From: Desulfonauticus submarinus
GTDB lineage: Bacteria > Desulfobacterota > Desulfovibrionia > Desulfovibrionales > Desulfonatronovibrionaceae
NCBI RefSeq assembly: GCF_900104045.1
Contig: NZ_FNIN01000009.1
Location: forward strand, 1-64,000
Length of the DNA stretch: 64,000 nucleotides
Reading direction: 5' to 3'
Shown here in pieces: positions 4,029-48,857 of the stretch. The position numbers and the translations under genes were made by a program. Every line of letters starts with the position of its first letter. Position 1 is the stretch's first letter. The notes under the pieces are model-generated. The model saw nothing but the letters and a program-made list of their open reading frames with translations. It had not been told where the DNA came from and made no database searches.

Positions 4029-5033
4029 CTATATGTTGTAGTAATTTTTATACCAATGTATAAATTTTTGAATTCCCTCTTGGATAGGTGTTTTAGGTGC
4101 AAAGCCTACATCTTGGACAAGATCATCTATATCTGCAAAGGTTTTTGGCACATCTCCTGGTTGAAGAGGGAGGAATTCCTTAATTGCTTTTTGTCCCAAC
4201 GCGTTCTCAATAGCCTCGATAAAAGTCATTAGAGGAACAGGGTTGTTGTTGCCAATATTGTATATTTTGTAAGGAGCAACACTTGTGCCAGGGTCGGGGT
4301 TATTCCCATTCCAATTAGGATTTGGCTTGGGAAGGTGTGATGTTAGTCTAAAGACACCTTCAACTATATCGTCTATATAAGTAAAGTCTCGTTCCATTTT
4401 GCCATGATTAAACACTTTTATTGGTTTTTGTTCGAGGATAGCTTTTGTAAATAAAAATAAAGCCATATCTGGTCTTCCCCAGGGGCCGTATACAGTAAAA
4501 AATCTAAGTCCTGTACAAGGTAGATTGTAAAGATAGGCATAAGTGTGGGCCATTAGTTCATTTGCTTTTTTGGATGCAGCATATAGGCTAATAGGGTGAT
4601 CCACATTGTGATGAATGGAAAAGGGCATTTTAGTATTTAATCCATATACAGAACTAGAAGATGCAAAGACTAAGTGTTTTATTTTAAAGTGTCGACAACA
4701 TTCTAAAAGATTAGCAAAACCTACAAGATTGCTTTGCACATATGACTTGGGATTTATTATACTATAGCGAACTCCTGCTTGAGCAGCCATGTTTATCACA
4801 TGGGTAGGTTGTTCTTTTTGGAATAATTGTTCTAAAGATGAATCATCTGCTAAGTCTAGGTGATAAAACTGAAATTGGGGAGATTTTAGTTGAGCCAAAC
4901 GATCTTTTTTGAGTTCTACAGAGTAATAATCATTTAAATTATCTAAACCCACCACCTTAATATCTTCTTGTAAAAAGCGTTTAGCCAAATGAAAACCAAT
5001 AAAACCTGCTACCCCAGTAATAAGAACTTTCAT
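4029..5033 (-). CDS. UDP-glucuronate 4-epimerase-like NAD-dependent sugar epimerase
   Basis: 334 residues of the extended short-chain dehydrogenase fold. The NAD-binding GVAGFIG motif is at residues 7-13, the catalytic Ser is in FASSSSVYG (about 124-131), and Tyr151/Lys155 lie in YAASK. The [19 protein letters not shown] start and the [13 protein letters not shown] segment are characteristic of UDP-glucuronate 4-epimerases (CapI/LpsL group), which make UDP-galacturonate for cell-surface polysaccharides. Other UDP-hexose epimerases cannot be fully excluded. It is transcribed alone, with a terminator behind it. The 246-base gap to the next gene shows no clear further feature. Confidence 0.88.
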
Positions 5034-35913: not shown

Positions 35914-37134
35914 TTAGTTTTTTAAACATAATTGAGCGTAGGGAAAAGGCTCAAGGCAACGATGAATGACTCCTTGGAGGTAAGATATTGTTAAGCCATA
36001 ATTAGTAATAGGAACTCCTTTTTTTCGAGCTTTATAAATACGAGTTAACATTTCTCGCCGATTTAAAACACAGGCAGCACAGTGTATAATGAGCTTGTAT
36101 TCTTCCAGATGTTCAGGGAAATTTTTTCCTGCGCAAATATCGCATTGAATATGTACTCCTGTATATTGTTGGAGCCAGCGAGGGATTTTTACTCTACCGA
36201 TATCATCTGCCAAGGGATGATGGGTACAGGCCTCAGCAATAAGGACTTTATCGTGTGGTTGAAGTTGCTCTATGGCTTTTAATCCGCGGGAAAAAATGGC
36301 TAAATCTCCTTTAAATCTAGCCATAATAATGGAAAAGGTAGTCACCCATACATTTTTGGGAGTGTCTGCTACAGTTTTTAATACACACTGAGAATCGCAA
36401 ATAACAAGTTTTGGATCGCGATTTAATCGTTGCAATGCATTTCTAAGTTCTCTTTCTTTAACTACTATACAATAGGCATCATTATCTAGAATATCTCGAA
36501 TCGTTTGAACTTGGGGCAGGATTAGTCGCCCTTTTGGAGCTTGTAAATCAATAGGAACTACTAGCACTGCCAATTCTCCTGCTGAAACAAGGTCTCCTAT
36601 TAGAGTAGGAGGGTTAAACCAATCTGGAGGTGTAGTTTGCAAAAGAAGTTCTTTTAGTTCTTTTATCCCTTCTTTTTTTGTAGCTGATATACCAATAAAA
36701 GGTATTCCCGCTGTTTCTAGTTTTTGCTGGAGAGTTGCATTTATAGGTTCAAGATCTGTTTTATTAAAAACCACAACAAAAGGTATTTTTTGTTTTTGCA
36801 GAATATTTTTAATTTTTTCTTCAAACTCTCCCCAGATGTTTGTTTCAGTAACTAGGATAGCCAAATCCGTGCGCTCAAGAGTTTGCATTGTTTTTTGTAT
36901 CCGCATTTCTCCTAAGGCCCCTATGTCATCTATACCTGCTGTATCAATAAAAACAACTGGACCAAGGGGCAAAAGTTCCATGCTTTTTTCTACAGGATCC
37001 GTAGTTGTGCCAGGAGTGTCTGAGACAATAGCAATGGACTGAGAAGTTATGGCATTTAAAAGAGAAGATTTACCTACATTTCTTCGACCAAAAATGCCTA
37101 TGTGAAGTCTTAAACCTTTTGGGGTTTTTTGCAC
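35914..37134 (-). CDS. hydF: [FeFe] hydrogenase H-cluster maturation GTPase HydF
   Basis: 406 residues. The N-terminal GTPase has P-loop GRRNVGKSS (16-24), DTPGTTTDPV, DTAGIDD and NKTD. A dimerisation domain follows. The C-terminal cluster domain has CTHH and, about 50 residues later, HCAACVLN, the CxHx(46-53)CxxC-type ligand set. HydF is the scaffold on which HydG and HydE products become the diiron subcluster delivered to apo-HydA. Its start overlaps the end of hydE by 25 bases, suggesting translational coupling. Confidence 0.96.
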   Translation of the reverse strand: MQKTPKGLRLHIGIFGRRNVGKSSLLNAITSQSIAIVSDTPGTTTDPVEKSMELLPLGPVVFIDTAGIDDIGALGEMRIQKTMQTLERTDLAILVTETNIWGEFEEKIKNILQKQKIPFVVVFNKTDLEPINATLQQKLETAGIPFIGISATKKEGIKELKELLLQTTPPDWFNPPTLIGDLVSAGELAVLVVPIDLQAPKGRLILPQVQTIRDILDNDAYCIVVKERELRNALQRLNRDPKLVICDSQCVLKTVADTPKNVWVTTFSIIMARFKGDLAIFSRGLKAIEQLQPHDKVLIAEACTHHPLADDIGRVKIPRWLQQYTGVHIQCDICAGKNFPEHLEEYKLIIHCAACVLNRREMLTRIYKARKKGVPITNYGLTISYLQGVIHRCLEPFPYAQLCLKN

Positions 37135-38163: not shown

Positions 38164-40479
38164 CTAAGATACTTCTTTTTTAGAACGATCAATGTATTGG
38201 GTATGTAATAGGTGATGCGCTAGCTTACTTACAGGTTCTTTTAGAAAATCAGAATAAACTTGTTTGACCTCAGGGTTTTCATGAGATTTTCTTAAGGCAC
38301 ACTTTTTATCGTCTGTATTTAAAGCCGTTGTTCTGGTTTTAACAGTTGTTGGATTAGTGGGAATAGGTTGTCCGCCACCGCCAATACATCCTCCAGGACA
38401 AGCCATAAATTCTATAAACACGTAATCTTTGAAACCATTACCCTGCTTGATAGATTCACATATCTTACGAGCATTGCTAAGCCCATGAGCTACAGCTACT
38501 TTAATTTCTTTGTTACCTAGTTTAATAGATGCTTTTTTTATTCCCTCCAAGGATCCCAGATCTTCAAATTCTAATTTTTCTAAAGGAGTGCCTGTAATTA
38601 GTTCATAAGCTGTGCGTAATGCTGCTTCCATAACACCGCCTGTGCGTCCAAATATTGTTGCTGCACCCGTATATTTACCGATTAAGGGATCTGCTTCTTC
38701 CTCGGGCATTTTTTTAAGATCAATTCCTAGAATTTTTAAAAGCTTGGCGCATTCCCTTGTAGTGAGAACATAATCCACATCTTGAAATTTATTGTTTACT
38801 TCACCTTTTTCTTGCCAATATTTAAAGGCATCACACATTTCTTCTCTTTCTCGTTCATATTTTTTGGCCGTGCAGGGCATAATAGAAACAACAACCATTT
38901 TTTTAGGATCGATCCCAAGTTTTTTGGCTGCGTATGTTTTAGCTATGGGCCCAAGCATTTGTTGAGGGGATTTAGCTGAAGATATATTAGGAATAAGTTC
39001 TGGATAAAAGGTTTCGCAAAATTTTACCCAACCGGGGCTACAAGAGGTAAATTGTGGCAAGGCAGAGCTTACCTCTTCTATGGCATGTTCATTTATGTTG
39101 AGGTCTGGAGGTAGTTCATCTTTGCTTAAGATTCCTGCTTTTATAAGTCGTAAGATCAGTTCTGTACCTTCTTCGATAATGGTTAGATCAGCAGTAAAAT
39201 TGGTATCCCATACTTTGTCAAAGCCTGCCTTTCTTAACGCTGCATATAATTTATGGGTTACTAAACTACCTGGCTCCAGGCCAAATTCCTCTCCTAGGCT
39301 GGCTCTAATGGAAGGAGCAAATTCAACTACAACAAACTTTTCTGGATCTTGGAGAACATTTATGACTTCTTGTACTTGATCTATTTCTCTAATTGCACCT
39401 AGTGGTCTAGAATAAGCACAAGTTTCACAACCAAAGGCTTTTTTAAATACCTTTACGGCATTTATTTCTTTGCCCATGGGACAGGCATGAATACATTGCC
39501 CACAGCGTACACATTTTGACTCATCTAGTATTATTCCTTTTTCCTTATCAAGGACAATTGCCTCTGCAGTCTGTATTGTTTTGCAGGTGTCTACACAGCT
39601 ACCACAACGTATACAGAGCTCAGGGTCATAAAGAATAGAAGGGGCTGAAATCCAACCTGTAATTTTTTGTTCTTTTATCTTTTCTTTGGAAATTAATCCT
39701 GCATTTTCTGCTTCACAAATAACAAGTTCTTGTAACTTCTTGATTAGATAACAATTGTCTTTTTCTTTAAGCCAGCTTAACCTTTCGTTAAGTTTTTTTT
39801 CTATTAAACTGGATTTAGTTTTAATAACCATACCTTCTTTAACCATTAAGTTTTTAAGCATTTTTGCGTGTACTATGCGACCATCAACTTCTACAATATT
39901 TAATAAAGGACAATTTTGATTTTTTATTGCTGCTAGTTGAGGTAGGTGATAAGGAAGAAAGTAAGATTTATTCTGTTCTTTTAAAAGTTTTTCAATAGTA
40001 GTATTCTTTTTTGTCTGGATTTCTTGGCCATCAACAGAAAGTTTAACAGGAGTTGTTTCTTGGGGTAACTCTTCTCCTTTTAATGGATTTGGGCCTAATT
40101 GTTGTATTTGTGTCGTATACTCTTTCATTACCTCAGCGAATTTGTAACCTTCTGCGCCAGAAATCCATTCTAACCTTAAACGTTGAGGCTCAAAACCAAG
40201 TTCCGGTAAAATTTCTTTCATCTTTTTTATTCTGCGCTCTGTCTTGTAATTACCTTCTTTATAATGACAATCTCCAAAGTGACATCCACCTACAAAAACA
40301 GCATCTGCGCCTTTTAAAAGAGCTTCTAAGATAAATTCAGGAGCCACTGTCCCAGAACAAGGAACACGAATTAATTTTGTGTTTGGGGGATATTGGCATC
40401 TTAAGTTACCTGCTAGGTCTGCTCCTGCATAGGTACACCACTGACAAGCAAAACCAACTATATTTGGTTTAAAAGACAT
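38164..40479 (-). CDS. Cytoplasmic [FeFe] hydrogenase with fused N-terminal MvhD domain
   Basis: 771 residues. (1) MvhD/FlpD domain, about 1-135, with Cys12, 15, 28, 41, 66 and 71, including CHFGDCHY: the [2Fe-2S] subunit that links hydrogenase to HdrA. (2) NuoG-like ferredoxin domain, 145-222, with one Cys left. (3) Relic of the His-ligated cluster domain, about 224-262. (4) Two [4Fe-4S] motifs, Cys289/292/295/299 and 323/326/329/333. (5) H-cluster domain: L1 TSCSPGW (478-484), L2 MPCTAKKYE (534-542), L3 MACPGGCIGGGGQP (692-705). (6) C-terminal small-subunit domain (about 725-765). No signal peptide, so cytoplasmic. It follows hdrA and precedes hydE and hydF. Likely role: exchange electrons between HdrA and H2/protons in a bifurcating or confurcating complex. 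Confidence 0.93.
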   Translation of the reverse strand: MSFKPNIVGFACQWCTYAGADLAGNLRCQYPPNTKLIRVPCSGTVAPEFILEALLKGADAVFVGGCHFGDCHYKEGNYKTERRIKKMKEILPELGFEPQRLRLEWISGAEGYKFAEVMKEYTTQIQQLGPNPLKGEELPQETTPVKLSVDGQEIQTKKNTTIEKLLKEQNKSYFLPYHLPQLAAIKNQNCPLLNIVEVDGRIVHAKMLKNLMVKEGMVIKTKSSLIEKKLNERLSWLKEKDNCYLIKKLQELVICEAENAGLISKEKIKEQKITGWISAPSILYDPELCIRCGSCVDTCKTIQTAEAIVLDKEKGIILDESKCVRCGQCIHACPMGKEINAVKVFKKAFGCETCAYSRPLGAIREIDQVQEVINVLQDPEKFVVVEFAPSIRASLGEEFGLEPGSLVTHKLYAALRKAGFDKVWDTNFTADLTIIEEGTELILRLIKAGILSKDELPPDLNINEHAIEEVSSALPQFTSCSPGWVKFCETFYPELIPNISSAKSPQQMLGPIAKTYAAKKLGIDPKKMVVVSIMPCTAKKYEREREEMCDAFKYWQEKGEVNNKFQDVDYVLTTRECAKLLKILGIDLKKMPEEEADPLIGKYTGAATIFGRTGGVMEAALRTAYELITGTPLEKLEFEDLGSLEGIKKASIKLGNKEIKVAVAHGLSNARKICESIKQGNGFKDYVFIEFMACPGGCIGGGGQPIPTNPTTVKTRTTALNTDDKKCALRKSHENPEVKQVYSDFLKEPVSKLAHHLLHTQYIDRSKKEVS

Positions 40480-40609
40480 CTGCTCACCTCCTTAAAAATG
40501 TATATATTTACAATATTAACTAGGTTATGCGTATTTTTGGGGATGAGTTTGTCATTAATTTTTGTGGGTGTAGTAGGAACAACTACTTCAATGTTTACCT
40601 TTGACAATG

Positions 40610-40619
40610 CAATACCCCC
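40610..40619 (+). promoter_or_regulatory. CAATACCCCC motif upstream of the fused hydrogenase gene
   Basis: CAATACCCCC occurs here in the 210-base gap between hdrA and the fused hydrogenase gene. It recurs in the opposite orientation upstream of hdrA. A C-run of this kind is rare in this AT-rich DNA, so it may be a shared operator. Inference only. Confidence 0.35.
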
Positions 40620-40689
40620 CTTGGTTTATATAAGCTGGCAGGGTGTGTTTTAATATAGATAGACTCATGCCAGCTCAAATAAAATCTGT

Positions 40690-42711
40690 TTAAGCGTCAT
40701 CCATAGTAAGAGCGGCTATTTGGGCGAAAATAGCTTCTTTAGTGTATCCATGTAAGATTATAGCTTGAGATGGACATGCTGCTGCACATACTCCACATCC
40801 CTTACAACTAGTTTCTTCTATTATGGCTCTAAATTGCCCATGTTTATTTTTTTTCAGAGAAATAGCACTATAAGGACAAAGTGGCATACAAATGCCGCAA
40901 CCACTACATTGTTCAGAATAGACTTCAGAAATAATAGGCTCGATTTTGACTCTGCCTATAGCTAGCGGATCTGCTGCTGCAGAGGCTGCAGCTTTACCTT
41001 GGGAGACTGTATCAGGAATATCTTTTGGACCTTGGCAACAACCTGCTACAAAAATTCCTTCTACAGATGTTTCTACTGGGCCTAGCTTAGGGTGAAGTTC
41101 TTTAAAAAAGTTTGCCCCACAGAATTGAAGCCCTAGGGTTTGAGCTAATTTTTTACTGCTTTTGGGTAATTCAATTGCAGTAGCTAGAATAACTAAATCA
41201 GATTCATATTCAAGGGGCGTTCCTGCTTCAAGGTCATAAGCCATAACTCTTAACTTATCCCCTGGAAGTGCTTCTAAACCGCCTACTTTCCCTCGGAAAA
41301 TATTAATTCCCATTTGTCGAGCGCCAGTATAGTACTCATCATATCCTTTCCCTGGCGTGCGAATATCAATGAAGTGCATGTTGATATTTAGTTCAGGATA
41401 TTTTTCTTTTAATAGTCTTGCTTGCTTTATCATATACATGCAACATACTTTTGAACAATAGGTATGAAATTTTTCATCTCTCGAACCTACACAAGAAATA
41501 AAGGTTATGGTGTTTGGTTTTTTATTGTCAGAGGGACGTAAAAGTTTTCCCCCAGTAGGTCCTGTAGCAGAAATAAGTCTTTCTAGTTGTAAAGCAGTAA
41601 TGACGTTTGGGGAATGAGGAGCTAGTTCTTTAAACCAATTTTTTTCCATAACCTTATAACCTGTGGCAACTACAATAGAGCCAACTTCTATTTCTATGGT
41701 TTCTCCATGAGGGTTATAAGGAATATCCCTATTAATTGCTCCTGCCGGACATACCTTTTGGCAAGGTGCTAAAATAGGGTTACCAGTTTTTTTGCTAATT
41801 TTTGTTTTTTCTCCATATTTACGACCATCACAATTTTTACAATTTTTTATATCTAAAACTGCTTTTTTGGGTACTGCCTGAGGGAATTGAATATAAATTG
41901 CCTTGCGAGAATCTAAACCACAATTAAATTCATCAGGAATTTTGACAGGACAAACTTCAACACACGCCCCACATCCTGTACATTTATCCCAATCAACATA
42001 GGTTTGTTTTTTACGTATTTTAACTTTAAAATTTCCTATATATCCTTCAACTACTTCTACTTCGCTATAAGTCAGTAATTCGATGTTAGGATGGTTTGCC
42101 ACATCTACCATTTTAGGAGTAAGTATGCAGGCAGAACAGTCATTTGTAGGAAAGGTTTTATCTAACATTGCCATTACTCCACCAATTGAAGGCTTTGTTT
42201 CAACTAGATATGTTTTATAACCTTTGTTTGCTAACTCTAAAGCTGCAGAAATACCTCCTATGCCTCCACCTATTACCAGAGCAGAGTTAATTGCTTTTAC
42301 GTATTTTTCTTCCAAAGGAGTCAAATGGGCTACTTTTGCTACGGCTGAGGCAACTAATTTTTTAGCTTTTTCAGTTGCTCCCTCTTTATCGTGGGAATGA
42401 ACCCAACTATTTTGATCACGGATGTTGGCCATTTCAAAAAGATATTTATTTAATCCTGCAGACTCTAATGTATTTCGAAATATAGGTTCATGAGTTCTTG
42501 GAGTACAAGCTGCTACTACTACCCTATCTATTAGGCCTTCTTTAATGTCCTGCTTGATTAGCTCTTGGCCTGCGTCAGAACACATGAATAAATCTTTTCT
42601 AGCTATCGCTACGTTGGGCAATTTTTCAGCAAACGCACGCACAGCCTCCACATCTATTACCCCTCCGATATTTGTACCACAGTGACATACATATACTCCT
42701 ATTTTGGACAT
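40690..42711 (-). CDS. hdrA: HdrA-like heterodisulfide reductase flavoprotein subunit
   Basis: 673 residues. The N-terminal domain has C9HC and Cys44/Cys69 of the HdrA type. The FAD-binding thioredoxin-reductase-like domain has GGGIGG at 148-153. A [4Fe-4S] insertion (Cys244/247/250/254) is followed by a second cysteine-rich insertion (Cys291, 294, 317, 321) and ISCVGSRDE. A C-terminal two-cluster ferredoxin has Cys602/605/608/612 and 636/639/642/646. HdrA holds the bifurcating flavin in methanogen Hdr-Mvh complexes. Here it sits directly before an MvhD-hydrogenase fusion, its expected electron partner, with no HdrB/HdrC nearby. GGAGGGG precedes the start. Confidence 0.93.
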   Translation of the reverse strand: MSKIGVYVCHCGTNIGGVIDVEAVRAFAEKLPNVAIARKDLFMCSDAGQELIKQDIKEGLIDRVVVAACTPRTHEPIFRNTLESAGLNKYLFEMANIRDQNSWVHSHDKEGATEKAKKLVASAVAKVAHLTPLEEKYVKAINSALVIGGGIGGISAALELANKGYKTYLVETKPSIGGVMAMLDKTFPTNDCSACILTPKMVDVANHPNIELLTYSEVEVVEGYIGNFKVKIRKKQTYVDWDKCTGCGACVEVCPVKIPDEFNCGLDSRKAIYIQFPQAVPKKAVLDIKNCKNCDGRKYGEKTKISKKTGNPILAPCQKVCPAGAINRDIPYNPHGETIEIEVGSIVVATGYKVMEKNWFKELAPHSPNVITALQLERLISATGPTGGKLLRPSDNKKPNTITFISCVGSRDEKFHTYCSKVCCMYMIKQARLLKEKYPELNINMHFIDIRTPGKGYDEYYTGARQMGINIFRGKVGGLEALPGDKLRVMAYDLEAGTPLEYESDLVILATAIELPKSSKKLAQTLGLQFCGANFFKELHPKLGPVETSVEGIFVAGCCQGPKDIPDTVSQGKAAASAAADPLAIGRVKIEPIISEVYSEQCSGCGICMPLCPYSAISLKKNKHGQFRAIIEETSCKGCGVCAAACPSQAIILHGYTKEAIFAQIAALTMDDA

Positions 42712-42945: not shown

Positions 42946-44334
42946 TCATAATTTATATCCAAGAGCAGTCATTGCTTTTGGAGATAGTATGTAGTCTAAT
43001 TTTTCTTTTGAAATTAATTTTTTTTCCTGAACTATCTTTAAAACGCTCTTTTTGGTATTTAGAGCTTCTCTAGCTATCAAAGTTGCTTGTTCATATCCTA
43101 TATAGGGCAAGAGAGCAGTGATAATTGCAGGGCTATTGTATGCATAATATGTACAAATATTTTTATTTGCAGATATTTTTTGGATGCATTTTTTGTTAAA
43201 GATTTTATTTGCTTGATTGAGAAGGCTTAATGATTCAAGAAGTGCATGGGCAAGTAAAGGAAGAAATGGATTTAATTCAAGTTGTCCATTTTGGCATACT
43301 TGGGAGATTATAAAATCATTGGCCATTACTTTAATGGCTACTTGACCAATTGCTTCACAAATAACTGGATTTACTTTGCCAGGCATGATAGAGGAGCCAG
43401 CTTGAACTGCGGGCAAAATTATTTCTTTAAATCCAGCTATTGGGCCGGAGGACATTAAACGTAGATCTGTCGATATTTTAAATAAATTTACAGCATGAGC
43501 TTTTAGGATTCCTGCTACTTCCACAAAAGCATCTTGATTTTGAGTGCAATCTATCAAGTTTTCAGCTCTAGCAAGGTTTAAGTTTGTTTCTTCTCGTAGT
43601 TTTTCAATGACTAAGAAAATATACTTTCTTGGTGCTGTAAGTCCTGTTCCAATGGCTGTTCCTCCAATATTTACTACACGTAATCTTTCTTGACATTTGA
43701 AAACTCTCCATCTGTCTCTGGCAATTGCCTCTGCATAAGCTGAAAACTCTGCTCCCAAAGTAATAGGTACCGCATCTTGAAGTTCTGTGCGCCCTATCTT
43801 GATTATGTCAGAGAACTCTTTTTCTTTGGTTTGTAGAGATTCCTGTAGGTTAGCAATGTTTGTTTCAAGGTGGGATAATAGCGTGATAGCAGCAATTTTA
43901 ACAGCTGTAGGGTAAACATCATTAGTGGATTGATGTAGATTTACATGGTTAATGGGATGAACAAGATTATAATTTCCTTTTTCTCCTCCTAGTATTTCTA
44001 TTGCTCTATTGGCAAGAACTTCATTGATGTTCATATTAGTAGAAGTCCCTGCGCCACCTTGTAGAGCATCTACCACTATTTCGTTATGGAGCTTACCAGA
44101 GATGATCTCTTCACAAGCTGTAATTATAGCTTCTCCTATATCTGGGGGTAGATAATTTAGTTCTATGTTGGTTTTTGCACAGGCTTTTTTTACTAGAGCT
44201 AGCGCCTTGATCAGTTCAGGATGAATTTTTAGGCCTGATAAGGCAAAATTTTCTTTTGCTCTCAAAGAATGAATGCCAAAGTAAGCATTTTGGGGAATCT
44301 GTTTTTTGCCTAATAAGTCTTGTTCTATGCGCAT
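42946..44334 (-). CDS. aspA: Aspartate ammonia-lyase
   Basis: 462 residues of the fumarase/aspartase superfamily. QGGAGTSTNMNINEV, HVNLHQSTNDVYPTA and the catalytic loop signature AGSSIMPGKVNPV are all present. It converts aspartate to fumarate and ammonia. It ends the hydG unit and starts 3 bases after the 88-residue unknown gene. An aspA gene within [FeFe] hydrogenase maturation clusters also occurs, as I recall, in Desulfovibrio vulgaris, and suggests that its ammonia or product matters there, for example as a nitrogen source for the azadithiolate bridge; that link is inference in this window. Confidence 0.93.
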   Translation of the reverse strand: MRIEQDLLGKKQIPQNAYFGIHSLRAKENFALSGLKIHPELIKALALVKKACAKTNIELNYLPPDIGEAIITACEEIISGKLHNEIVVDALQGGAGTSTNMNINEVLANRAIEILGGEKGNYNLVHPINHVNLHQSTNDVYPTAVKIAAITLLSHLETNIANLQESLQTKEKEFSDIIKIGRTELQDAVPITLGAEFSAYAEAIARDRWRVFKCQERLRVVNIGGTAIGTGLTAPRKYIFLVIEKLREETNLNLARAENLIDCTQNQDAFVEVAGILKAHAVNLFKISTDLRLMSSGPIAGFKEIILPAVQAGSSIMPGKVNPVICEAIGQVAIKVMANDFIISQVCQNGQLELNPFLPLLAHALLESLSLLNQANKIFNKKCIQKISANKNICTYYAYNSPAIITALLPYIGYEQATLIAREALNTKKSVLKIVQEKKLISKEKLDYILSPKAMTALGYKL

Positions 44335-44337
44335 GGT

Positions 44338-44604
44338 TTAAATTTCCTTGGTAAGTTGCTTGGCAAAGGGAGTTATTTCTTGAAGTAAGGCTCGCATTGC
44401 TTCTTCAGATATATGTCCTTCTAAAAACATTGTAAGCTTGTTAGTTAAATTTATTTTTTGAGGACGAGTAAAAATTTCGATCCCATATCCACCTAAAAAA
44501 TGCTGGCGATTTCCTAAAGGTCGGGTAAAATATACCTTGGATAAGCCAAATTTAGTGCATATTATTTGAGCCTTTGTTTCTAATAATTTTTTAATATCAG
44601 CCAT
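44338..44604 (-). CDS. Small unknown protein between hydG and aspA
   Basis: 88 residues with no transmembrane segment. It reads KLLETKAQIICTKFGLSKVYFTRPLGNRQHFLGGYG, then EEAMRALLQEITPFAKQLTKEI at the end, consistent with a small alpha/beta fold. I do not recognise a named family. It lies 13 bases after hydG and 3 before aspA on the same strand, so it is almost surely translated with them and a role in H-cluster maturation or ammonia supply is plausible. The start ATG at 44604 has only a weak ribosome site. Confidence 0.75.
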   Translation of the reverse strand: MADIKKLLETKAQIICTKFGLSKVYFTRPLGNRQHFLGGYGIEIFTRPQKINLTNKLTMFLEGHISEEAMRALLQEITPFAKQLTKEI

Positions 44605-46145: not shown

Positions 46146-46394
46146 TTATTTTGTTATTAAAATAGACTTTACCTCTACCTGAGGAATGATTCCTAATTTA
46201 CCAGTGAAAGCCCCTATTTGATCGGTGTTGGCTTCTACGATTAAAGCTATAACATTTAATTTTTTTTCTTTATATGGAACTCCCATCCTACCTATAATAA
46301 TATCTCCATATTCTGATAAAATTGTGTTAACTCTTGGGCTAGATACTTTTCTGTTTTTTATAACAATAGCAATCACTCCCATTCTTTTATTCAT
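46146..46394 (-). CDS. TM1266-type putative regulator of the iron-only hydrogenase system
   Basis: 82 residues matching the small ACT-like family often encoded beside hydE/hydG: MGVIAIVIKNRKVSSPRVNTILSEYGDIIIGRMGVP and GKLGIIPQVEVKSIL. The fold resembles NikR C-terminal/ACT domains, so a ligand- or metal-sensing role has been proposed for the family; no direct function is known to me. Its start touches the end of the preceding gene (46395), so the two are coupled. Confidence 0.9.
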   Translation of the reverse strand: MNKRMGVIAIVIKNRKVSSPRVNTILSEYGDIIIGRMGVPYKEKKLNVIALIVEANTDQIGAFTGKLGIIPQVEVKSILITK

Positions 46395-46931
46395 TTAAAA
46401 CCTCCAAGATTTTTCTTTGCTTAAAGAGGTTAGATTATAAATTGGCTCGATTTTGTTGTTTGCTCGTAAAATGTTTTGTTTTTGTAATTCTTTTTTTATT
46501 ATTTTTATTGTTAAACGCATGGCTCTACATACTTCTTTAGAAATATAAATACAGTTATGTTGTTTAGTTTGAATAAAGATAAACTTAATTTCTTTAGGGA
46601 AACCGTTTATTAATTTTATTCTGTTAAGAGCTTGAGATAAGGGATAAATAGTTTTTACTTGATCCTCTAACCACGGAAGATGTTGTTTAAAGTTTTTATA
46701 GTCCCAATAAAGCACTTTGCCTGGCTTTAATCCAAGATTAATAGCTTGAACGATAATGGCTAATTCTGCCTTAAAGATCCAAATATCTGCCTTTACAGCT
46801 TCTTCTGCTAGATAGATTAAAGAAATATTATTTGCCAGGTTTTCTTGAGCTAGGGCCTCAATGAGATAACACCCAGCACCAAAATCACCTTTTAAAACAT
46901 CTCCAAAACTAATTATAGATATTTTATTCAT
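46395..46931 (-). CDS. M52 (HyaD/HycI-like) maturation-protease homologue lacking metal ligands
   Basis: 178 residues. The start IISFGDVLKGDFGAGCYLIEAL lines up, ungapped by eye, with the GNxLLxDEAxGxxxxxAL start of [NiFe] hydrogenase maturation endopeptidases. The three nickel-contacting residues of HyaD (Glu16, Asp62, His93) fall on Phe17, Gln62 and about Leu98 here, so peptidase activity of the usual kind is unlikely. First gene of the hydG unit. No [NiFe] hydrogenase is in the window. It may be a pseudo-enzyme that binds a hydrogenase subunit. The repeat AGTAATACT occurs twice just before the start codon. Family assignment is moderately sure. Confidence 0.65.
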   Translation of the reverse strand: MNKISIISFGDVLKGDFGAGCYLIEALAQENLANNISLIYLAEEAVKADIWIFKAELAIIVQAINLGLKPGKVLYWDYKNFKQHLPWLEDQVKTIYPLSQALNRIKLINGFPKEIKFIFIQTKQHNCIYISKEVCRAMRLTIKIIKKELQKQNILRANNKIEPIYNLTSLSKEKSWRF

Positions 46932-46933
46932 TT

Positions 46934-46963
46934 TAGTATTACTTTTTAAAAAATAGTATTACT
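46934..46963. promoter_or_regulatory. Direct repeat of a short palindrome before the hydG unit
   Basis: TAGTATTACT occurs at 46934-46943 and 46954-46963, exactly 20 bases apart (two helical turns). Each copy contains the palindrome AGTAATACT. They sit immediately before the first start codon (46931), where no ribosome site is visible, and could be an operator. Confidence 0.45.
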
Positions 46964-47060
46964 CGTAAATCTTTCTATAGGGAATCGTCATAAAATTATC
47001 AAGCACTTTTTCTAAAAAAATTTTATTTTTTTATATTCAAGAAAAAAATAATTAGCTGTG

Positions 47061-47120
47061 TTGACATATTTTTTTATATTTTTTATGCATCTGTTCAATT
47101 GTTTTTAAACCAATTGGTTT
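47061..47120 (+). promoter_or_regulatory. Predicted promoter and operator of the periplasmic hydrogenase genes
   Basis: TTGACA (47061-47066) and TATGCA (47084-47089) with a 17-base spacer form a sigma70-like promoter. A perfect 14-bp palindrome AAACCAATTGGTTT lies at 47107-47120, where it would cover the early transcribed region, a typical repressor position. Inferred from sequence only. Confidence 0.5.
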
Positions 47121-47151
47121 TTTATGTACTTTAATTTTTTGAGGAGGTGTT

Positions 47152-48495
47152 ATGGCTGCTTGTAGAGTTAAGGAAAAGCCTAAAGTTTTGCCGGTGGATT
47201 TATCCGCTATAATTCCAGAAAAGGAGGGAACGATGAGGAAGATGGAAGACGTTATTTATTTAAATAATGCTCCACACCATGAAGAGCCAGATAATATTTA
47301 TTTTGTCCAAGTAGATCCTACAAAGTGTCAGGGATGTGGAGAATGTGAGGAGCATTGTGCTACGGGAGCTATTCAATCTATAAATGAAGAAGGTATTCAC
47401 CAGGTGTTAAGTCCTTCAGCTTGTATGAATTGTGGACAGTGTTTAGCGAACTGTCCTTATGGGGCTATTTATGAGGGAGTTTCTTTTGTGGATGAAGTTT
47501 TTGAGAAGTTAAGGGATCCTGAGACTGTAGTTGTTTCTATGCCTGCCCCGGCTGTTCGTTATGCTCTTGGAGAATGTTTTGGATATTCTCCTGGTACATA
47601 TGTAGGAGGTAAAATGCATGCTGCTTTAAGAAAGCTTGGATTTGATTATATCTGGGATAATGAATTTGCTGCCGACTTAACTATTATGGAGGAAGGAACC
47701 GAGTTAATCGAGCGAATTAAACACCCAAGTAAGGATAAGCCTCTACCTCAGTTTACCTCATGTTGTCCTGGTTGGGTAAAGTTTTGTGAATCTTTTTATC
47801 CAGATCTTTTGCCATATCTTTCTACTTGTAAATCTCCTATTGGTATGTTGAGTGCATTAGCTAAAACCTATGGTGCGCACCAAACTCATACACCTGGTCA
47901 AAAGATTTATACAGTATCTATTATGCCTTGTATTGCTAAAAAGTATGAAGGTCTTAGACCAGAAATGGCAGATAGTGGGTTTAGAGATATAGATGCAACT
48001 ATTAATACTAGAGAATTGGCTTATATGATTAAAAAGGCTGGTATTGATTTTAGAAGTTTGCCTAGTCAAGACCCTGATCCTGTACTTGGGATGTCTACGG
48101 GCGCTGCTACTATTTTTGGGACTAGTGGAGGAGTTATGGAGGCTGCTCTTCGTTTGGCTTATGAAGTTTTATCTGGGCAAAAACTTACTAAACCGGATAT
48201 AAAAATTGTTCGTACCCATGAAGGAATAAAGGCTGCGGATATTAAGATCCCTAAGTTTGGAACCATTAAAGTAGCTGTTGCTAGTGGGCTTAAAAATGCT
48301 GCTAAACTTTGTGAAGAAGTTAGAGCAGGTAAATCTCCTTACCATTTTATAGAAATTATGGCTTGTCCTGGTGGTTGTGTAAATGGGGGAGGACAGCCCT
48401 TAGACCCAAGTATCCGTGAGGAAGCTTCATTATTTAAAAGGATGATTGCAAAGATAAATAAACGGTATAAAGGACGTAAACCCACTATTAGTTAA
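47152..48495 (+). CDS. hydA: Periplasmic [FeFe] hydrogenase large subunit
   Basis: 447 residues from 47152. A two-cluster ferredoxin domain (CQGCGECEEHC, then CMNCGQCLANCP) precedes the H-cluster domain with L1 TSCCPGWVKF, L2 MPCIAKKYEGLRPE and L3 MACPGGCVNGGGQP, closely matching Desulfovibrio HydA. It is exported with the Tat-signal-bearing small subunit encoded next. Two starts are possible: 47152 (AGGAGG, 4-base spacing) and an in-frame ATG at 47233 (AAGGAGG, 5-base spacing), which gives 420 residues and the family's usual N-terminus. About 35 residues follow the last H-cluster motif, a tail that is processed in Desulfovibrio desulfuricans HydA. It is divergent from the hydG unit. Confidence 0.96.
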   Translation: MAACRVKEKPKVLPVDLSAIIPEKEGTMRKMEDVIYLNNAPHHEEPDNIYFVQVDPTKCQGCGECEEHCATGAIQSINEEGIHQVLSPSACMNCGQCLANCPYGAIYEGVSFVDEVFEKLRDPETVVVSMPAPAVRYALGECFGYSPGTYVGGKMHAALRKLGFDYIWDNEFAADLTIMEEGTELIERIKHPSKDKPLPQFTSCCPGWVKFCESFYPDLLPYLSTCKSPIGMLSALAKTYGAHQTHTPGQKIYTVSIMPCIAKKYEGLRPEMADSGFRDIDATINTRELAYMIKKAGIDFRSLPSQDPDPVLGMSTGAATIFGTSGGVMEAALRLAYEVLSGQKLTKPDIKIVRTHEGIKAADIKIPKFGTIKVAVASGLKNAAKLCEEVRAGKSPYHFIEIMACPGGCVNGGGQPLDPSIREEASLFKRMIAKINKRYKGRKPTIS

Positions 48496-48512: not shown

Positions 48513-48857
48513 ATGAAACGAATAGTAACAATAAGTAGACGTAGTTTTCTTAAAACAGCAGGTATTGCAGTAGGTTATATGGTTTTAGGTTTTAATTTAA
48601 CTAAGCAGGCTGTGGCTGCAACTATGGAGTTTATTGGCTTGAGGCAGAAGTCTGTTTATGAGGCTGATAGTAAGGTATATAAAATTAGAAAGTCTCAAGA
48701 GAATCCTATGATTAAAAAGATTTATGACAAGAAACATGGTTTTTTACATGAAGGTCCTTGCGGACATATGTCTCATCGCTTATTGCATACTAATTATTAT
48801 GATCGTAGTGCCAGAGTGAAGGCTTTGGAAGAAAAAGGAGTTAAATTGGCCATTTAG
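48513..48857 (+). CDS. hydB: Periplasmic [FeFe] hydrogenase small subunit with Tat signal
   Basis: 114 residues. The Tat signal carries SRRSFLK (about 8-14) followed by a hydrophobic segment to about Ala36. The mature part IRKSQENPMIKKIYDKKHGF and MSHRLLHTNYYDRS is the small-subunit domain that wraps around HydA. The folded dimer is carried across the membrane by the Tat system on this one signal. It lies 17 bases after hydA with AAGGAGG before the start. The same domain occurs fused to the C-terminus of the cytoplasmic enzyme at 38164. Confidence 0.96.
   Translation: MKRIVTISRRSFLKTAGIAVGYMVLGFNLTKQAVAATMEFIGLRQKSVYEADSKVYKIRKSQENPMIKKIYDKKHGFLHEGPCGHMSHRLLHTNYYDRSARVKALEEKGVKLAI

What the first reader, a model, noticed from the sequence alone, without database searches (positions are those of the whole stretch)
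46395..46931. Pseudo-endopeptidase: an M52-like hydrogenase protease fold with all three nickel ligands replaced, in an [FeFe] maturation operon
The N-terminal pattern and the spacing of later segments follow HyaD/HycI, the proteases that mature [NiFe] hydrogenases. The metal-contacting Glu16, Asp62 and His93 correspond by eye to Phe17, Gln62 and about Leu98. It is the first gene of a unit with a TM1266-type regulator, hydG and aspA. [FeFe] hydrogenases do not use this protease, but Desulfovibrio HydA large subunits are known to be trimmed at the C-terminus by an unidentified protease. A non-metal M52 relative could be a chaperone that recognises a hydrogenase tail, or an unconventional processing factor. 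Either would be new.
Basis: partly seen in the sequence, partly recalled or inferred. Interest (0 to 1): 0.68.

Follow-up and report, generated by a model that had tools for sequence, protein, structure and literature searches.

The report
Disarmed protease beside iron hydrogenase genes
This gene encodes a protein with the shape of the enzyme that finishes nickel-iron hydrogenases, but it has lost all three metal-holding residues and sits in the assembly operon of a different, iron-only hydrogenase, so it probably works as a helper or checkpoint protein and not as a protease.

Summary
Window 46395-46931 (-) encodes a 178-aa protein whose predicted fold is that of HybD (PDB 1cfz: Z 22.4, 1.9 Å over 157 residues). 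It is the first gene of a TM1266-hydG-ORF88-aspA unit, divergent from periplasmic hydAB.

It is no isolated relic. Fifteen members form one clade (support 0.997) in which every member readable at these sites lacks the ligands, while all 28 authentic M52 proteins compared keep them; close pairs show purifying selection. All 9 members found in the window's order (348 genomes) lie in [FeFe]-hydrogenase loci, 3 directly upstream of hydA. The link is to hydAB more than to hydG.

Two limits apply. Genomes without the gene have the same HydA tail, so it is not a general tail-trimming protease. Six members outside the order lie elsewhere, four beside FmdE genes and one before a double-cubane reductase; four of those genomes lack hydG.

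Best reading: a pseudo-peptidase, descended from an M52 protease, that binds HydA or HydAB as a non-proteolytic maturation chaperone or checkpoint (about 0.5). New variant of a known kind; functionally untested.

The parts
46395..46931 (-). Pseudo-M52 protein, 178 aa: HybD fold without the nickel ligands (F17, Q62, T94); C-terminal extension of about 20 residues with conserved IYxL
46146..46394 (-). TM1266-family putative regulator of the iron-only hydrogenase system, directly abutting the pseudo-M52 stop codon
   Evidence: PF21699 106.5 bits; TIGR03959 105.2 bits
44618..46111 (-). HydG, radical SAM H-cluster maturase
   Evidence: TIGR03955 464 bits
44338..44604 (-). 88-aa ORF of unknown family, conserved between hydG and aspA in three related genomes
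42946..44334 (-). AspA, aspartate ammonia-lyase; known to be able to supply nitrogen for the H-cluster bridging ligand
   Evidence: NF008909 667 bits; PMC11736057
40690..42711 (-). HdrA-like subunit
   Evidence: HdrA2 model NF040770, 817 bits over residues 2-670
38164..40479 (-). MvhD-HydA fusion, 771 aa (second [FeFe] hydrogenase)
   Evidence: TIGR02512 453 bits and VhuD 130 bits
37110..38192 (-). HydE maturase
   Evidence: homologous to the HydE hits
35914..37134 (-). HydF maturase
   Evidence: orthologues next to hydE
46932..47151 (.). 220-bp divergent intergenic region between the maturation unit and hydAB
47152..48495 (+). HydA, large subunit of the periplasmic [FeFe] hydrogenase, with the C-terminal tail corresponding to the part absent from mature D. 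desulfuricans HydA constructs
   Evidence: TIGR02512 482 bits; 1hfe_L 1.3e-149; tail
48513..48857 (+). HydB, small subunit with Tat signal
   Evidence: PF02256 67.5 bits; TIGR01409

Best explanation
The gene encodes a pseudo-peptidase: a protein descended from the M52 hydrogenase-maturation proteases that kept the fold and lost the nickel-binding (substrate-sensing) site. In the window's order it has been recruited to periplasmic [FeFe] hydrogenase. Shown here: fold, ligand loss across a monophyletic clade, purifying selection, and fixed linkage to hydAB and the H-cluster maturation genes. Inferred: it binds HydA or HydAB in the cytoplasm without cutting it, holding or checking the large subunit around the C-terminal/lock region while HydF delivers the [2Fe] cofactor, before Tat export through the HydB signal peptide. 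It is an accessory factor, not an essential one.
For: Fold: HybD Z 22.4, 1.9 Å, 157 residues; the divergent member G275 also matches HybD best, Z 18.5. Ligand loss in every readable member, against retention in 28 of 28 authentic M52s. Monophyly 0.997. Pairwise dN/dS 0.20-0.39. Operon linkage: pseudo-M52 followed by TM1266 in G000, G005, G046, G056, G103 and G198, with hydG next in all but G056; directly upstream of hydA-hydB in G275, G320 and G324. All 9 members in the order are in HydB-positive genomes (189 of 348; 9 of 9 by chance about 0.004). The genome has three authentic M52 proteases for other duties. Precedent: M52 proteases HydD and HyaD form stable complexes with a [NiFe] large subunit that depend on cofactor synthesis and do not need the C-terminal extension (PMC5299533). 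A gap to fill: heterodimeric HydAB matures very slowly in vitro and HydF does not relieve it (PMC12933642).
Against: Only 9 of 189 HydB-positive genomes in the order carry it, and G001, of the same genus, has the same hyd locus without it. Six members outside the order are not beside [FeFe] genes except for a HydF remnant; G703, G881 and G882 have neither HydA nor HydG, and G719 has only a weak HydA-domain hit and no HydG. No physical interaction was or could be tested; DdHydAB, on which slow maturation was measured, is not from a genome shown to carry this gene.
Confidence: 0.5

Rival explanations
1. General metallocluster adaptor: the clade is a broader family of non-catalytic M52-fold proteins serving several complex metalloenzymes or metal-handling systems (HydAB, double-cubane reductase, FmdE-type proteins). 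[FeFe] hydrogenase is one recruited client and not the defining one.
For: Four members lie beside FmdE (PF02663) genes (L055, L056, L057/G719, G614), L056 also with a siderophore-type ABC transporter, MinD/ParA-type ATPase, TrmO and a methyltransferase; G587's lies upstream of a double-cubane-cluster reductase and its ATPase; G703's abuts a HydF C-terminal remnant. The window's group is nested with these members in the tree.
Against: In the window's order all 9 are in hyd loci, in several arrangements. Only six members outside were found, two of them apparently broken (G719/L057, G614), and the function of the FmdE cluster is unknown.
Confidence: 0.25
2. Unconventional protease that trims the HydA C-terminal tail without a metal ion.
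For: HydA in the window has the tail region that is absent from constructs of mature HydA; the gene abuts hydA in three genomes.
Against: The same tail occurs in HydA of G001, G024, G048, G058, G026 and G053, which lack the gene. Conserved polar residues of the clade are D16, Y22, E25, Q29, Y40, R139 and Y165, with no catalytic-looking Ser/Cys/His set.
Confidence: 0.07
3. Partner of TM1266 or of HydG/HydF in regulation or cofactor assembly, and not a factor that binds HydA.
For: Gene order with TM1266 in six genomes (0 bp gap in the window), hydG next in five; a HydF remnant lies beside it in G703.
Against: In G320 and G324 it is beside hydAB only, with hydG elsewhere in the genome; G056 has it without hydG.
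Confidence: 0.12
4. Decaying relic of an M52 protease with no present function.
For: Lost active site, patchy occurrence, apparent frameshifts in G719/L057 and G614.
Against: Intact ORF and confident fold at 16-27% identity between distant members; dN/dS 0.20-0.39; conserved operon position; clade-specific conserved residues.
Confidence: 0.05

Closest known systems
HybD / HyaD / HycI, peptidase family M52 ([NiFe] hydrogenase maturation proteases; PDB 1cfz, 5ija, 2e85)
   Same: Same fold over the whole core; G10, D16, G18, G20, P70, G71 and P112 shared with M52; gene lies with genes for a hydrogenase and its maturation.
   Different: All three nickel ligands replaced and the GGT motif at 41-43 lost; scores below curated cut-offs; own conserved residues (G15, Y22, A26, Q29, F81, R139) and a C-terminal extension; partner genes encode [FeFe] and not [NiFe] hydrogenase.
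HydE, HydF and HydG, the known [FeFe] maturases, and AspA
   Same: Encoded in the same unit.
   Different: No recognised sequence or fold relation; those build the H-cluster or feed it, whereas this protein has no recognised catalytic site.
Tat proofreading chaperones of cofactor-containing exported enzymes (from general knowledge)
   Same: Proposed role: holding a cofactor enzyme before Tat export.
   Different: Different folds; the role is only inferred here.

Membership tests
Peptidase M52 / HycI (TIGR00072, PF01750) | HybD-type fold | tested here: met
   1cfz Z 22.4, 1.9 Å, 157 residues; second member Z 18.5, 2.5 Å, 153 residues
Peptidase M52 / HycI (TIGR00072, PF01750) | Profile score above the curated cut-off | tested here: not met
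   43.7 against 47.45 bits; 22.2 against 23 bits
Peptidase M52 / HycI (TIGR00072, PF01750) | Nickel ligands Glu16, Asp62, His93 (HybD numbering) | tested here: not met
   F17, Q62, T94; lost in every readable clade member and kept in 28 of 28 authentic M52s
Peptidase M52 / HycI (TIGR00072, PF01750) | Encoded beside a [NiFe] hydrogenase large subunit | tested here: not met
   neighbours are [FeFe] genes; authentic M52s are elsewhere in the genome
Peptidase M52 / HycI (TIGR00072, PF01750) | Cleaves a hydrogenase large-subunit C-terminus | not testable with these tools
   needs biochemistry
[FeFe]-hydrogenase maturation factor | Conserved linkage to hyd structural or maturase genes | tested here: met
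   9 of 9 members in the order; not outside it
[FeFe]-hydrogenase maturation factor | Strict co-occurrence with hydG | tested here: not met
   complete genome G056 lacks hydG; G703, G719, G881 and G882 lack it
[FeFe]-hydrogenase maturation factor | Needed for or aiding HydA activation | not testable with these tools
   needs a deletion strain or an in vitro maturation assay

The most novel reading that the evidence does not exclude
The clade is a new class of cofactor-checking pseudo-peptidases: M52 folds stripped of nickel and catalysis that dock on metalloenzymes other than [NiFe] hydrogenase (heterodimeric [FeFe] HydAB, double-cubane reductase, FmdE-type proteins) and assist or gate cofactor loading. 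For HydAB it would be the missing factor behind the slow in vitro maturation that HydF alone does not relieve.
Probability: 0.3. Interest if true: 0.8.

Novelty: new variant of a known kind. Interest (0 to 1): 0.58.

Why it matters
[FeFe] maturation is described with HydE, HydF and HydG plus ammonia-lyases and the glycine cleavage system; no M52-fold protein was found described for it in the held literature. A conserved, ligand-free M52 protein encoded beside periplasmic HydAB would connect the two unrelated hydrogenase maturation worlds, would show that the M52 fold can serve as a docking or checking module without proteolysis, and gives a concrete candidate for an in vivo helper of the slowly maturing heterodimeric HydAB.

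Tried and rejected
Single-sequence phmmer against PDB found no M52 chain; only profiles did. The scan of genome contigs with the four-member alignment gave only 4 loci because one peptide pattern was used, so absence elsewhere is weakly tested; phyla other than the window's were not searched systematically. Wider searches in the orders of G703 and G587 found no further members. G007, G043 and G082 were considered as members and rejected: G007 and G082 keep all three ligands, G043 keeps two, and all score far lower. A test of whether HydA tails differ between genomes with and without the gene showed no difference beyond lineage. A search for a remnant of the gene upstream of TM1266 in G001 found none by eye. 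Rfam found no RNA element near the operon in the window. A complex prediction of the protein with HydA was not possible with the single-chain tool.

Full report
What is there. The ORF at 46395-46931 (-) is intact, 178 aa, with an ATG start. It is the first gene of a run on the minus strand: pseudo-M52, TM1266, hydG, an 88-aa ORF and aspA (gaps 0, 34, 13 and 3 bp), then hdrA (gap 234), an MvhD-HydA fusion (gap 210), hydE and hydF (both overlapping). Divergently, 220 bp away, lie hydA and hydB of a periplasmic [FeFe] hydrogenase, hydB with a Tat signal. No [NiFe] hydrogenase gene is among the neighbours read (31.4-53.3 kb). The genome has three authentic M52 proteases elsewhere.

Is it an M52 fold? 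Yes. Single-sequence scores are just under the curated limits (TIGR00072 43.7 of 47.45 bits; Pfam HycI 22.2 of 23), but 11 of 11 aligned family members match TIGR00072, the family profile finds HybD 1cfz at 2.2e-10, and the AlphaFold2 model (pLDDT 86.9, pTM 0.83) aligns to 1cfz at Z 22.4, 1.9 Å, 157 residues, well above the peptidyl-tRNA hydrolase rows at about 13. A second model, of the divergent G275 member that has no Pfam hit, also has HybD as its best match, Z 18.5.

Are the ligands gone? Yes, in the whole clade. At the HybD Glu16 position the 13 members that cover it have only F, M, H, R, K, L or S; at Asp62 the 15 members have no D; at His93 none of the 15 has H in the aligned position. 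The GGT stretch of M52 is lost too, while Gly10, Asp16, Gly20, Pro112 and other fold residues remain, and new conserved positions appear (Gly15, Tyr22, Ala26, Gln29, Phe81, Arg139), together with a C-terminal extension carrying a conserved Tyr and Leu. No catalytic-looking set of residues is conserved.

Is it maintained? The pseudo-members form one clade (support 0.997, FastTree). Nei-Gojobori dN/dS is 0.26 for G046/G103, 0.39 for G046/G056 and 0.20 for L055/G703; for the window and G005 synonymous sites are saturated. Purifying selection is inferred from these values.

Where is it found? In the window's order 348 genomes were searched. Nine have the gene: G000, G005, G046, G056, G103, G198, G275, G320 and G324. 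G007 and G082 also passed the threshold, but they keep all three ligands and are ordinary M52. In six of the nine it precedes TM1266, with hydG next in all but G056; in G275, G320 and G324 it directly precedes hydA-hydB. All nine are HydB-positive, as are 189 of 348 (9 of 9 by chance about 0.004). Eight of nine have hydG; complete genome G056 has none found, although hydA, hydF, aspA and TM1266 are present and hydE lies elsewhere. So the link is to HydAB more than to HydG. The gene is optional: G001, of the same genus, has hydAB and TM1266-hydG-ORF88-aspA without it.

Outside the order six members were found. Four (L055, L056, L057 which is G719, and G614) lie next to or near an FmdE (PF02663) gene, in L056 together with a siderophore-type ABC transporter, a MinD/ParA-type ATPase, TrmO and a methyltransferase. 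G703's lies beside a HydF C-terminal remnant and about 4 kb from an FmdE gene. G587's is upstream of a double-cubane-cluster reductase and its ATPase. G703, G881 (L055) and G882 (L056) have neither HydA nor HydG; G719 has a weak HydA-domain hit and no HydG; G587 and G614 have HydG and HydA-domain proteins elsewhere. The window's group branches among these, so its recruitment to [FeFe] hydrogenase may be secondary, or the FmdE context may be; this is not resolved.

How it most likely works. Established: authentic M52 proteins HydD and HyaD bind the large subunit of a [NiFe] hydrogenase stably, only when the cofactor can be made, and without needing the C-terminal extension (PMC5299533). Established: in heterodimeric HydAB the small-subunit terminus lies at the lock element that closes over the cofactor, the enzyme matures very slowly in vitro, subunit fusion speeds this up to 41-fold, and loaded HydF does not help (PMC12933642). 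Inference: an M52 fold without nickel or catalysis, encoded with hydAB, is placed to hold that region of HydA while the [2Fe] cofactor is inserted, or to signal that it is loaded before Tat export. AspA in the same unit fits its known role of supplying nitrogen for the bridging ligand (PMC11736057).

The trimming idea. The tail is present in the window's HydA, but it is also present in six HydAB genomes without the pseudo-M52 gene. The gene is therefore not the general trimming protease.

Verdict. By inference it works like the binding half of an M52 protein; it is not an M52 peptidase by the tests made here. Function is untested.

Noticed in passing
window 44338-44604 (-): 88-aa ORF between hydG and aspA with no Pfam or NCBIfam family, conserved in the same place in G001, G005 and G008 (45-59% identity).
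   Followed up: partly
window 38164-42711 (-): An MvhD-HydA fusion (771 aa) and an HdrA-like protein are inserted between aspA and hydE in the maturation unit, suggesting a second, Hdr-coupled [FeFe] hydrogenase.
   Followed up: partly
L012 1900-7760 (G056): Complete genome with hydA, hydB, hydF, aspA, TM1266 and the pseudo-M52 gene but no hydG found; hydE lies elsewhere. How the CO and CN ligands are made there is unclear.
   Followed up: partly
L106 5866-7554 (G703): A transposase-like gene and a 112-aa HydF C-terminal remnant lie directly before an intact pseudo-M52 gene in a genome without HydA or HydG, which looks like a decayed hyd operon.
   Followed up: partly
L046 about 4400-4470 (G001): In the same-genus locus that lacks the pseudo-M52 gene, a GC-rich hairpin followed by T (terminator-like) lies just upstream of TM1266.
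   Followed up: no
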